From contig CAMDOM010000018.1 of assembly GCA_945903645.1 (NCBI GenBank), positions 1-50,705 of the forward strand: 50,705 nucleotides of DNA. Direction: 5' to 3'. The DNA is from Chryseobacterium gleum (GTDB lineage: Bacteria; Bacteroidota; Bacteroidia; UBA10329). The translations under genes and the position numbers were made by a program. Shown here one piece after another: positions 26,920-31,208 of the stretch. How positions within the stretch are numbered: position 1 is the stretch's first letter; every line of letters starts with the position of its first letter. Under the pieces are notes generated by a model, which was not told where the DNA came from, did not search any database, and saw nothing but the letters and a program-made list of their open reading frames with translations.

Positions 26920-28278
26920 ATGGAAATCCAATCAAGTTCCCCCAAACTAGAACGCACCCTTGGCCCTGTGATGCTCTGGGGGCTTGGTGTGGGCTACGTT
27001 ATCAGTGGCATGTATTTCGGGTGGAATCTCGGGCTGGCCGAGGGAGGCACGCTGGGGCTGGGCATCGCCACGCTGTTCATCATCGTAATGTATGTCACCT
27101 TCACATTCAGCTACACAGAACTGGCCTGCGCCATCCCGAAAGCGGGTGGGGCATTTGACTATGCCGACCGCGCCTTGGGCCGCAAATGGGGATTTTTGGG
27201 CGGCATGGCTCAAATCATTGAGTTTGTGTTCGCTCCGCCCGCTATCGCTGCCGCTATTGGGGCCTATTTTCAGCTTTTCATCAAAACAGAGCCCGTTATT
27301 CTGTCCTTAGCCGATTGGAGTATTGAATTTCCGTGGATGGCCATTCTCGCCTACTTCGCGTTCACCGCCCTCAACATTGCGGGGGTCAAAGCGGCCGCCA
27401 TGTTCGAGCTGGTGATCACCATTCTGGCTGTGGCCGAACTTCTCATTTTCGCAGGTGTAACGCTACCATCGTTCGAAATGGTGCATCTCACCACCAATGC
27501 CTTGCCCAACGGTATTTCGGGCATTTTCGCGGCCATCCCGTTCGCCATTTGGTTCTTCCTCGCCATAGAGGGCGTGGCCAACGTGGCTGAGGAAACCGTG
27601 AACCCGCAGCGCAATGTGCTGCTCGGTTTCGGGTCGGCCATCCTCACGCTGGTCATTCTATGCATCCTCACCTTCGTGTCGTCTGTCGGGGTTGCTGGCT
27701 GGGAGGCGGTGGTCTATGATGCGCAGGGCAACCCTTCCGACAGCCCGCTGCCATTGGCCTTGGCGCACATTGTAGGCGATAGTGGATTGATGTATCATCT
27801 CCTACTCACCATCGGGCTGCTGGGGCTGGTGGCCTCCTTCCACGGCATCATCCTCGCTGCGGGACGCGCCACCTACGAGTTTGGCCGAAACGGCCTCGCT
27901 CCAAAAGCATTAGGACAAGTGCATTCCAAGTTTCGCACTCCCGCTAATGCACTTTTCTTTAATATGGTGATAGGTATAATTGCATTGATGACGGGTAAAA
28001 CGGGCCAAATTATCACCATCGCATGTTTTGGAGCGCTGATGCTCTACATCATCAGCATGGTATCTTTTTTTGTGCTGCGCAAAAAAGAGCCCAACATGGA
28101 GCGGCCATTCAAAGTACCGTTCTATCCGTTGTTTCCAGCATTGGCATTGAGTATTGCCACATTCAGCATCATTGCCATGGCATGGTACAACGCTCAATTG
28201 GCATTAATTTTTCTTGCGATAATGGCATTTTCATTCCTTGCGCACACCGTAATTCAATCCAAACCAAATGGAAACTAA
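26920..28278 (+). CDS. APC-family permease, ethanolamine type
   Basis: A 452-residue inner-membrane transporter with about 12 helices. The first helix region WGLGVGYVISGMYFGWNLGL and the segment ELACAIPKAGGAFDYADRAL are typical of the Eat ethanolamine permease branch of the amino acid/polyamine/organocation family. The 3' end overlaps the glutamine-synthetase-like gene by 11 bases. Substrate assignment rests on this resemblance and on the neighbour, which could gamma-glutamylate an imported amine. Confidence 0.8.
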   Translation: MEIQSSSPKLERTLGPVMLWGLGVGYVISGMYFGWNLGLAEGGTLGLGIATLFIIVMYVTFTFSYTELACAIPKAGGAFDYADRALGRKWGFLGGMAQIIEFVFAPPAIAAAIGAYFQLFIKTEPVILSLADWSIEFPWMAILAYFAFTALNIAGVKAAAMFELVITILAVAELLIFAGVTLPSFEMVHLTTNALPNGISGIFAAIPFAIWFFLAIEGVANVAEETVNPQRNVLLGFGSAILTLVILCILTFVSSVGVAGWEAVVYDAQGNPSDSPLPLALAHIVGDSGLMYHLLLTIGLLGLVASFHGIILAAGRATYEFGRNGLAPKALGQVHSKFRTPANALFFNMVIGIIALMTGKTGQIITIACFGALMLYIISMVSFFVLRKKEPNMERPFKVPFYPLFPALALSIATFSIIAMAWYNAQLALIFLAIMAFSFLAHTVIQSKPNGN

Positions 28279-29641
28279 AAACAATGACCGCGAAAGTATC
28301 TTAACTGAAATCCGCAATTCTCCTCACCTCAAGGTGAAGGTAGCGGTGGCCGATATAGACGGCATTTTGCGTGGCAAAGTGATGCGTAAGGACAAGTTTC
28401 TTTCTGCTGTAGAAAGCGGTTTCGGCTTCTGCGATGTGGTATTTGGTTGGGACAGCACCGATGCGGCTTATGACAACGTTTCCTACACCGGCTGGCATAC
28501 TGGCTATCCAGATGCTCAAGCCCGCATCGACCTCGCTACATTTCGAAAAGTGCCATGGCAAGACGATATGCCTTTTTTCTTAGCCGACTTTCGCGATTCC
28601 AAGGGAGGCCCGTTGCAAGTATGCCCCCGCAGTTTGCTAAAAACCGTTCGCGACCGTGCCGAGTCAATGGGATACAAGCCGTTTTTCTCCCAAGAATTCG
28701 AGTGGTTCAATTTTCGAGAGGATGCCGATAGTTTGAAGGAGAAAGGCTACGCCAATTTACAGCCACTTACTCCTGGCATGTTCGGCTATTCAATCGTCCG
28801 CAGCTCGCAGAATAGCGAGTTCTTCAACGACCTATTCGACCTCTTGGAAGATTTCGATGTGCCGATTGAGGGACTGCACACCGAAACTGGTCCAGGAGTG
28901 TATGAAGCGGCCATTCTTTATTCGGACATCCTAACCGCTGCCGACCGCGCTGTGCTGTTCAAAACGGGCGTAAAGGAAATCGCTCATCTGCATGGCATCA
29001 TGCCCACCTTCATGGCTAAAATCAGTCCGAGCTTGCCCGGTTGCAGCGGCCACGTTCACCAGAGTCTATGGGACATCAAGGCCAAAAAGAACCTCTTTTT
29101 CGATGCCAAAGGCCGCAAAAATATGAGTCCGCTTATGGAGAGTTACATGGCGGGCCAACTGCACTGCCTGCCACACATCTTGCCGATGATTGCGCCCACC
29201 ATTAACAGTTACAAGCGTTTGGTAGAAGGCGCGTGGGCACCTACCACGCTCACTTGGGCAACGGACAATCGAACCGTGGCTCTACGGGCCCTTCCCGAAG
29301 GCGAAAAGAGCTGTAGAGTGGAAACACGTGTGGTAGGTTCGGACACCAACCCCTATCTCGCCATGGCCGCCTGCCTCGCTGCTGGGCTATATGGTATCAA
29401 GCACAACTTGAAGCTCTCCGTTCCCGAAACCATAGGCAGCGGTTATCGAGACAAAGGCGCTGGCATTTTGCCCCGCAACCTCTGGGAAGCAACGCAGACC
29501 ATGAAAGACTCTGAAATTGCCACCGAGCTGTTTGGTGCCGATTTCGTAGCCCACTTCACCGCCACCCGCGAATGGGAATGGCGCGAGTTCTCCAAAGCTG
29601 TTACTGACTGGGAAACGAAACGGTATTTTGAGATTATCTAA
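28268..29641 (+). CDS. glutamine synthetase family ligase, gamma-glutamyl-amine type
   Basis: A 457-residue member of the glutamine synthetase superfamily. The catalytic layout is kept: FSQEFEWFNF and GLHTETGPGVYEAAI carry the metal-binding Glu residues, HGIMPTFMAKISPSLPGCSG with HVHQSLW is the ATP/metal His region, and NSYKRLVEGAWAPTTLTWAT holds the glutamate-binding stretch. The sequence lacks the adenylylation-loop Tyr of classical GlnA and resembles gamma-glutamyl-polyamine or ethanolamide synthetases. With the overlapping amine permease gene it would trap an imported amine as its gamma-glutamyl amide. The later enzymes of such a pathway are not beside it. Confidence 0.82.
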   Translation: METKNNDRESILTEIRNSPHLKVKVAVADIDGILRGKVMRKDKFLSAVESGFGFCDVVFGWDSTDAAYDNVSYTGWHTGYPDAQARIDLATFRKVPWQDDMPFFLADFRDSKGGPLQVCPRSLLKTVRDRAESMGYKPFFSQEFEWFNFREDADSLKEKGYANLQPLTPGMFGYSIVRSSQNSEFFNDLFDLLEDFDVPIEGLHTETGPGVYEAAILYSDILTAADRAVLFKTGVKEIAHLHGIMPTFMAKISPSLPGCSGHVHQSLWDIKAKKNLFFDAKGRKNMSPLMESYMAGQLHCLPHILPMIAPTINSYKRLVEGAWAPTTLTWATDNRTVALRALPEGEKSCRVETRVVGSDTNPYLAMAACLAAGLYGIKHNLKLSVPETIGSGYRDKGAGILPRNLWEATQTMKDSEIATELFGADFVAHFTATREWEWREFSKAVTDWETKRYFEII

Positions 29642-29644
29642 TCC

Positions 29645-30598
29645 TCACCCCCTTTTCCGCTTCCTATTCTCCACATATTCCTTGATGGCCGTTTCCGTAG
29701 TAAACCAATTTCGGCCTTCCTTGTAGGCATCAATCTTGCCCTGTCGCGCCAGTAGGCTCACATATTCTTGCCCATAGCGCAACGGGCTTTCAGACACAAT
29801 ACTCGATATTGAGCGATAATCCTCCATTTCTGGATAAAGACTGAGATGAATATCCAACGAACGTTCCATGGCCTGCACCATCAGCAGCACCAGTTTCACA
29901 TACGACCCACCGTTTGCTCTGTTGAGCGCATCATAATACTTCTTCCGGTCATTTTTGAGAATGATGGCAGGCGGATAGCCCTTCCGCATCAGTAATAGGT
30001 TCATGACCAAACGCACGGTGCGACCATTCCCATCAAAGAAAGGATGAACCCAAACAAACCTATGATGGAACACCGAGGCCAGCACAATAGGACTTAACCC
30101 CATCTCATTTGTATTAACGAAAGCGATAAGCTCGGTGAGCAAATCAGGCACCTTTAGCGCATTGGGCGGAGTGAAATTCGCCCCGACTATTCGCACACCC
30201 GAATTGCGAAGCCGACCTGCAAAGTCTTTTTCCAAGCGCAGCATCACCATCGAATGAAGGTGCAATATCTCGTGCTCCAAAATGGGCGTATCCGATAATA
30301 CGAGCTGCTCCAAATGCGAAATGGCATCGTGGTGGTTGGTCACTTCAAAATGCTCGCGCATTGATTTGCCTTTCACCGTCATGCCGTCTTCTAGCACAAT
30401 TCTGGTCTCATTTAGTGTAAGTGTGTTGCCTTCAATGCTGTTGGAATTGTAAGTCCACTCTACGTTTAAGGCAACGCGAAGCTTTTCTAGAGCAACTTGC
30501 ACCATCGGTCGCTTCGCATCAAGGATTTTCTTTTTATCCTCAAGGCGTTCGATGCTTGCTTGCAGGTCATTAATATCGGATAGCTCTACTTTCCACAC
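29645..30598 (-). CDS. Fic family AMP-transferase with C-terminal DNA-binding-like domain
   Basis: A 317-residue Fic protein that would transfer AMP (or another nucleotide part) to target hydroxyl groups. The catalytic motif HPFFDGNGRTVR is complete at 185-196. An inhibitory helix motif of the S-x-x-x-E-G type is seen N-terminally (S52 to E56-G57 in NSNSIEGN), so activity is held off in cis. The last 70 residues (YGQEYVSLLARQGKIDAYKE to YVENRKRKRG) look like a winged-helix or excisionase-like DNA-binding module. The start is GTG at 30598. Two inverted 13-bp sites flank its start region, which suggests autoregulation. Confidence 0.87.
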   Translation of the reverse strand: MWKVELSDINDLQASIERLEDKKKILDAKRPMVQVALEKLRVALNVEWTYNSNSIEGNTLTLNETRIVLEDGMTVKGKSMREHFEVTNHHDAISHLEQLVLSDTPILEHEILHLHSMVMLRLEKDFAGRLRNSGVRIVGANFTPPNALKVPDLLTELIAFVNTNEMGLSPIVLASVFHHRFVWVHPFFDGNGRTVRLVMNLLLMRKGYPPAIILKNDRKKYYDALNRANGGSYVKLVLLMVQAMERSLDIHLSLYPEMEDYRSISSIVSESPLRYGQEYVSLLARQGKIDAYKEGRNWFTTETAIKEYVENRKRKRG

Positions 30599-30650
30599 AA
30601 CCCCACAAATATATATCGTTTATTTCAAATTTTATATCTATCCGATATTA
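30571..30650 (-). promoter_or_regulatory. pair of inverted 13-bp operator-like sites around the fic promoter
   Basis: TAATATCGGATAG at 30571-30583 (inside fic codons 6-10) and its perfect inverse CTATCCGATATTA at 30638-30650 flank the fic -7 box and GTG start. Each arm itself contains a 9-base dyad TATC-N-GATA. Centre-to-centre distance is 67 bases. The layout suits repression by looping or by two bound dimers; the Fic protein's own C-terminal domain is the obvious candidate binder. Confidence 0.6.
30606..30613 (-). promoter_or_regulatory. -7 element of fic
   Basis: The minus strand reads TATATTTG, a full TAnnTTTG match, ending seven bases before the GTG start, so the transcript would have almost no leader. 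No -33 TTG lies at the standard distance. Confidence 0.45.
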
Positions 30651-30714: not shown

Positions 30715-31122
30715 TTAACCCACCCAACGGGAAATGAAATATCCTGCTGTGCTTACCAGCGCTGTGAGTACCACGCCCCAAATAATGTCAATGAATACAA
30801 TGGGTAATGGCCAATCTTTCAGCGTGGCAAGATTGGTAAGGTCATAGGTAGCGTATGTGAAGAACCCAAACAATCCGCCATAGATGATTGCCATTTGCAA
30901 CGATTCCTTTTCTACTGCGGGTACTATGGCAAAGATGAAAATGCCGATAATGAAGAGTAAATAAAACACTAATGCCGCTGTCCAATTGATGTTTGGCGAA
31001 AGGAAGCTGCCAAGGTATTTTGCATAGATTCCTTTTGCTAAAAAGCCCAGCCAGACCATATCAATAGCGAAGAAAACGAGGGTGGTTAAGAGATAGCTGA
31101 GGAGTAGAGTTTTGACCGACAT
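30715..31122 (-). CDS. DUF2177-family small membrane protein
   Basis: A 135-residue membrane protein with four helices. The family landmarks are present: FFAIDMVWLGFLAK in the first helix, TYDLTNLATLKDWPLPIVFID in the loop and DIIWGVVLTALVS in the last helix. The role of DUF2177 is unknown. ATG at 31122 gives the usual start; ATG-less extension to 31161 is not needed. Confidence 0.85.
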   Translation of the reverse strand: MSVKTLLLSYLLTTLVFFAIDMVWLGFLAKGIYAKYLGSFLSPNINWTAALVFYLLFIIGIFIFAIVPAVEKESLQMAIIYGGLFGFFTYATYDLTNLATLKDWPLPIVFIDIIWGVVLTALVSTAGYFISRWVG

Positions 31123-31208
31123 GATTTTGAAAAGTTGAAGTAAAACAATCAAAACAGCCAAAATTAAGTCTTGTTCTTGGTTAATACGAATCCATTTGAA
31201 TTACATCA

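What the first reader, a model, noticed from the sequence alone, without database searches (positions are those of the whole stretch)
29645..30650. Fic gene whose start is bracketed by two perfect inverted 13-bp sites, with a DNA-binding-like tail: probable self-regulated Fic switch
The sites TAATATCGGATAG (30571-30583) and CTATCCGATATTA (30638-30650) are exact inverses, each with a TATC-N-GATA dyad, and they enclose the -7 box TATATTTG and the GTG start. Fic itself has a complete catalytic motif, an N-terminal inhibitory motif and a C-terminal tail that looks like a winged helix. A Fic enzyme that represses its own gene, and perhaps loses that grip when it or its DNA-binding tail is nucleotidylated, would be a compact control device.
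Basis: partly seen in the sequence, partly recalled or inferred. Interest (0 to 1): 0.72.

Follow-up and report, generated by a model that had tools for sequence, protein, structure and literature searches.

The report
Fic enzyme that represses its gene
This gene makes a Fic enzyme (a protein that tags other proteins) with a DNA-binding tail, and a paired DNA site in front of it, kept in relatives from several phyla, indicates that the protein switches off its own gene, as one other Fic protein is known to do.

Summary
The two 13-bp inverse sites exist exactly as stated and are unique in the 3.2 Mb genome. It sits upstream of 55/65 tail-bearing orthologs at 1 mismatch or fewer (60/65 at 2 or fewer; the exceptions are mostly explained). 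Flanking tiles give 1/1701, and tail-less relatives 0/12 plus 0/11. Searched in reverse, the strict operator occurs 7 times in 395 Bacteroidota genomes, 5 of them directly before a tail-bearing fic and 2 inside ORFs. The intragenic site is kept only in the three nearest relatives. The tail is predicted to be a winged HTH of the HTH_17/excisionase type. Best reading: a class II Fic, FICD-like in its core, that binds its promoter as a dimer and represses itself. CccR of Yersinia pseudotuberculosis is an experimental precedent (PMC9755527), so this is a new, widespread variant, not a new kind. A nucleotidylation link remains untested.

The parts
29645..30598 (-). fic gene, GTG start, 317 aa: FICD-like class II Fic core plus C-terminal HTH tail
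   Evidence: orthologs
30614..30650 (-). operator TAATATCGGATAG...ACGATA: two inverted arms, TATCGG (30647-30642) and ACGATA (30619-30614), 22 nt apart
   Evidence: conserved upstream of tail-bearing orthologs; coordinates
   Evidence: the A variant of the first base is seen in 26% of loci
30606..30613 (-). -7 box TATATTTG (Bacteroidota TAnnTTTG type; a consensus match)
30571..30583 (+). intragenic copy of the arm in codons 6-10 (LSDI); secondary, kept only in L031-L033
30425..30445 (-). codons 52-58, inhibitory motif SNSIEGN (class II position)
   Evidence: S52, I55, E56, G57, N58 invariant in 44 orthologs
30020..30046 (-). codons 185-193, catalytic motif HPFFDGNGR
29666..29815 (-). codons 262-311, C-terminal winged HTH (predicted recognition helix 277-285, wing 291-300)

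Best explanation
fic encodes a class II (self-inhibited) Fic nucleotidyltransferase whose C-terminal winged HTH binds TATCGG-N21/22-CCGATA in the fic promoter as a dimer, one tail per arm. Bound there, it covers the -7 region and shuts off its own transcription. This keeps a potentially harmful enzyme at a low level and lets the level recover when binding is lost. Shown here: the operator, its conservation, its near-exclusive link to the tail-bearing gene and the predicted DNA-binding fold. Inferred: that the tail is what binds, that binding is dimeric, and that the effect is repression.
For: Operator upstream of 50/59 non-training tail-bearing orthologs at <=1 mismatch of 12 (54/59 at <=2), against 1/1701 and 12/1701 flanking tiles of the same length; tail-less relatives 0/12. 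Within Bacteroidota, 5/5 further tail-bearing genes against 0/11 tail-less ones. Reverse search: 5 of 7 strict operators in 395 genomes lie directly before a tail-bearing fic, the other 2 inside ORFs. In 28 genomes, 28 of 52 looser matches are fic promoters; 20 of the 22 others that I read lie inside ORFs, so no wider regulon is seen. Operator kept in orthologs of 43-49% identity in Anaerolineae, Spirochaetes and Nanohalarchaeota MAGs. Arms and gap stay fixed while the distance to the start and to the -7 box shifts, with the -7 box after the arms in 31 loci and between them in 10. Tail: HTH_17 in 31/44 members, pLDDT above 90 over the HTH core, weak Foldseek matches that include lambda Xis-DNA, BldC-DNA and TraN. 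Precedent: CccR represses its own gene through two 10-bp inverted boxes 26 bp apart (PMC9755527).
Against: No binding or expression data. The window's own HTH_17 score (16.8 bits) is below Pfam's cut-off of 27, and the best Foldseek E-value for the tail is 0.13. The window's proximal arm is a one-mismatch variant. L094 carries a divergent tail and no operator. Dimerisation was not modelled.
Confidence: 0.85

Rival explanations
1. The tail binds the operator but activates fic, in the manner of MerR-type activators.
For: The tail is of the HTH_17/excisionase kind, akin to MerR-type DNA-binding domains, and the operator lies at the promoter.
Against: The operator takes at least two registers relative to the -7 box (after the arms in 31 loci, between them in 10) and reaches the start codon in L092, L093 and L095. 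That suits steric blocking better than activation, which needs fixed geometry. CccR represses.
Confidence: 0.07
2. Another host regulator binds the sites, and the Fic tail does something else.
For: No direct binding data for the tail.
Against: The site is nearly exclusive to tail-bearing fic promoters in genomes from several phyla and is absent from tail-less relatives. A host regulator would need further targets and would not travel with the gene.
Confidence: 0.05
3. One reading: the operator is the pair 30638-30650 and 30571-30583, bracketing promoter and start.
For: Exact 13-bp inverse pair, unique in the genome; the intragenic site is kept in L031-L033 with shared TCC-GAT-ATT codons.
Against: Most tail-bearing orthologs lack the intragenic site but have the -7-adjacent arm; the distance between the two named sites drifts from 62 to 68 nt, whereas the conserved pair keeps a gap of 21 or 22.
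Confidence: 0.1
4. The inverted sites are chance or a coding coincidence.
For: The intragenic copy encodes LSDI, so protein constraint could keep part of it.
Against: Operator in 50/59 non-training loci against 1/1701 flanking tiles; reverse search returns tail-bearing fic.
Confidence: 0.01

Closest known systems
CccR (Yersinia pseudotuberculosis, PDB 7XUX)
   Same: Class II Fic with a C-terminal HTH; far-spaced inverted boxes near the promoter elements; autorepression shown by gel shift, footprint and reporter (PMC9755527). Sequence similarity over residues 49-240, E = 2.7e-21.
   Different: Boxes AGATAATCAT-N26-ATGATAATCT, not TATCGG-N21/22-CCGATA. According to PMC10628234 it has an N-terminal DUF4172 domain, which no listed match in this family shows. 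CccR is a secreted toxin acting on FtsZ; neither property was tested here.
CbFic2 (Coxiella burnetii, PDB 8CIL)
   Same: Fic with a C-terminal HTH that binds DNA (PMC10628234).
   Different: No operator or autoregulation reported in the passages read; assays used random DNA; DUF4172 architecture; weaker sequence match (E = 8e-5).
SoFic (Shewanella oneidensis, PDB 3EQX and others)
   Same: Class II Fic with a C-terminal winged HTH; PADLOC SoFic model matches residues 50-263.
   Different: DNA binding not shown according to PMC10628234; the NCBIfam SoFic equivalog score is far below cut-off (43.8 against 550 bits); the tail is not covered by the match.
FICD/HYPE (human, PDB 6I7G and others)
   Same: Closest solved Fic core by sequence (E about 3e-38) and by fold, with the same inhibitory and catalytic motifs.
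   Different: Eukaryotic enzyme without the bacterial HTH tail or operator.

Membership tests
Fic/DOC family (PF02661) | Profile score above cut-off and the HPFxxGNGR motif | tested here: met
   69.4 bits against a cut-off of 24; motif conserved
Class II Fic | Inhibitory (S/T)xxxE(G/N) motif N-terminal to the Fic motif | tested here: met
   S52-N-S-I-E56-G-N, core residues invariant in 44 orthologs
Class II Fic | Self-inhibition of activity by that motif | not testable with these tools
   needs an enzyme assay; the AlphaFold2 model is poor over residues 46-60
HTH_17 (PF12728) tail | Profile score above Pfam's cut-off | tested here: inconclusive
   16.8 bits against 27 for the window, but 31 of 44 members match at E <= 1, best 1.3e-5
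HTH_17 (PF12728) tail | Winged HTH fold | tested here: met
   helix, recognition helix, two-strand wing, helix; Foldseek support weak
CccR-type autorepressing Fic | Inverted boxes in the gene's own promoter | tested here: met
CccR-type autorepressing Fic | Direct binding and repression | not testable with these tools
   needs gel shift and reporter
DUF4172-Fic-wHTH (SoFic, CbFic2, CccR) | N-terminal DUF4172 domain | tested here: not met
   DUF4172 is not among the 18 families matched by any of 44 members at E <= 1
SoFic anti-phage defence | NCBIfam SoFic equivalog score above cut-off | tested here: not met
   43.8 bits against 550

The most novel reading that the evidence does not exclude
Enzyme state and repression are coupled: opening of the inhibitory helix, self-modification, a dimer-monomer change or target engagement releases the tails from the operator, so the Fic senses a condition and raises its own level. 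The operator-tail pair has been kept over phylum-level distances and would be a one-gene sensing switch.
Probability: 0.2. Interest if true: 0.72.

Novelty: new variant of a known kind. Interest (0 to 1): 0.5.

Why it matters
PMC9755527 states that class II Fic proteins make up about 80% of Fic proteins and that nearly nothing is known of their functions or control. CccR was a single case. Here a different Fic-HTH fusion, with another tail type, operator and lineage, keeps one operator across Bacteroidota and into Chloroflexota, Spirochaetes and DPANN-labelled MAGs. That makes autorepression a likely general strategy for Fic enzymes without a separate antitoxin, and gives a ready 37-bp test site.

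Tried and rejected
A wider regulon: stray matches of TATCGG-N21/22-CCGATA lie almost all inside ORFs. A conserved partner gene or antitoxin: neighbours are shared essentially only among close relatives. Solved-structure search with the tail profile: nothing useful. The shuffle test with gaps 8-35 is too loose (about 10% background), so with gaps fixed at 21/22 is used. PADLOC SoFic hit: covers the Fic part only, so no defence role is claimed.

Full report
Observation. No other exact inverted 13-mer pair within 80 bp exists in the window, and the 13-mer occurs nowhere else in the 3.2-Mb genome without a mismatch. The gene is a Fic/DOC protein (PF02661, 69.4 bits) of 317 aa with a GTG start.

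Which sites matter. In the first five loci (the window and orthologs of 60-89% identity) the upstream site is kept, the intragenic one only in the same genus, and a further half-site lies next to the -7 box. A scan of genome contigs gave 80 more loci. Nearly all loci with the C-terminal tail show a form of TTAATATCGGATA-N~16-TATCCGATATTAA upstream. In 62 scored loci ATCG is invariant in the distal arm and nearly so in the proximal arm; the gap between TATCGG and CCGATA is 21 (33 loci) or 22 (26 loci); 26% carry ACGATA in the proximal arm as the window does. In the window the arms are 30642-30647 and 30614-30619, gap 22, and the -7 box TATATTTG (30606-30613) adjoins the proximal arm.

Statistics. 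With the criterion fixed at gap 21/22, non-training tail-bearing loci hit 33/59, 50/59 and 54/59 at 0, <=1 and <=2 mismatches of 12, against 0, 1 and 12 of 1701 flanking tiles of the same length, and 0/12 tail-less relatives. The five misses at <=2 appear to be a contig edge (L067), a perfect operator 224 nt upstream (L088), gap 13 (L074), gap 20 (L091), and L094, whose gene follows closely on another reading frame and whose helix reads YLAFLAR. Five loci that the parser skipped also carry the operator (one with gap 20). Loci are related by descent, so counts are not independent events.

Reverse test. The strict form AATATCGG-N21/22-CCGATATT occurs in 7 of 395 Bacteroidota genomes. Five copies lie directly before a tail-bearing fic and two inside unrelated ORFs; the reversed control pattern gives one genome. 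In 28 genomes searched with the looser form there are 52 sites: 28 before fic; of 22 others read, 20 lie inside ORFs. A separate protein search in 198 genomes gave 5/5 further tail-bearing genes with the operator (two of them already seen) and 0/11 tail-less relatives.

The intragenic site. It is fixed at codons 6-10 in the window and L031-L033, while its distance to the upstream arm drifts (62-68 nt). The TCC-GAT-ATT codons are shared although codons at conserved residues agree only 40-63% between the window and these relatives, and only 1 of 13 shared serine codons agrees between window and L032. This hints at some DNA-level constraint but is a post hoc count.

The tail. Pfam HTH_17 matches 31 of 44 members; the window is sub-threshold. 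AlphaFold2 gives a helix, a recognition helix, a two-strand wing and a helix, with pLDDT of 90 or more for 38 of 71 residues (full chain mean 82). Foldseek matches are weak (best E 0.13) but include many DNA-binding proteins: TraN, lambda Xis-DNA, Pukovnik Xis, BldC-DNA. Y275, Y279, L283, A284, R285, G287, A291, K293 and W298 are invariant in 35 tails, in line with one shared operator.

The core. FICD is the closest solved relative by sequence and by fold. The inhibitory S-x-x-x-E-G-N and the catalytic motif are kept. The AlphaFold2 model is poor over residues 46-60, the inhibitory region, so its position is not modelled.

Helix and operator. Candidatus Chlorohelix (L165) has a related Fic whose helix reads YLGWLVR. 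Its promoter lacks TATCGG but carries another inverted pair, AGATAATTACTACGAAT-N16-ATTCGTGGTAATTATCT. A viral contig (L166) with another HTH tail has another, weaker pair. These are single cases that fit a tail reading its own operator; they are not a test.

Mechanism. Fixed arms and gap, with a start codon and -7 box that slide relative to them (-7 after the arms in 31 loci, between them in 10), point to a protein bound at two half-sites that blocks RNA polymerase. Where the -7 box lies after the arms, the operator is upstream of the expected transcript, so an RNA hairpin is unlikely there. Repression and not activation is inferred. No conserved neighbour was found across most genera, so the gene seems self-contained.

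Known work. CccR represses its own gene by binding AGATAATCAT-N26-ATGATAATCT near -35 and -10 and needs dimerisation, and its authors describe the regulatory and toxic activities as independent (PMC9755527). CbFic2 binds DNA through its HTH with nanomolar affinity, tested on random sequences (PMC10628234). Kinch et al. 2009 already proposed that HTH domains fused to Fic may regulate fic (PMC2686095). Searches of the held papers found no report of this family or operator; only open-licence papers are held.

Verdict.

Noticed in passing
L098, L105, L108 (upstream of fic): Fic relatives from Bacilli MAGs carry an HTH of similar type at the N-terminus instead of the C-terminus, and their promoters show imperfect inverted repeats, such as TATACCGATAACGG / CCGATTCCGGTATA in L105, around TTGACA and TATAAT-like boxes: possibly an independent self-regulated arrangement.
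   Followed up: partly
L165:1379-1428: A Chlorohelix plasmid fic with an altered recognition helix has a different 17-bp inverted pair (94% complementary) upstream.
   Followed up: partly
L078, upstream of fic: Two complete operators in tandem in front of one fic gene, 57 nt apart start to start (G463:C7).
   Followed up: no
L144 (same genome as L091): A second tail-bearing fic with its own perfect operator in the genome of L091, an Anaerolineales MAG.
   Followed up: no
window 30288-30300: A third, two-mismatch copy of the arm inside fic; likely a coding coincidence.
   Followed up: no
window 28268-29641 and 30715-31125: The upstream neighbour is a DUF2177 membrane protein on the same strand; a glutamine synthetase-domain gene converges on fic from the other side, and a neighbour at that place is shared with L031.
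   Followed up: partly
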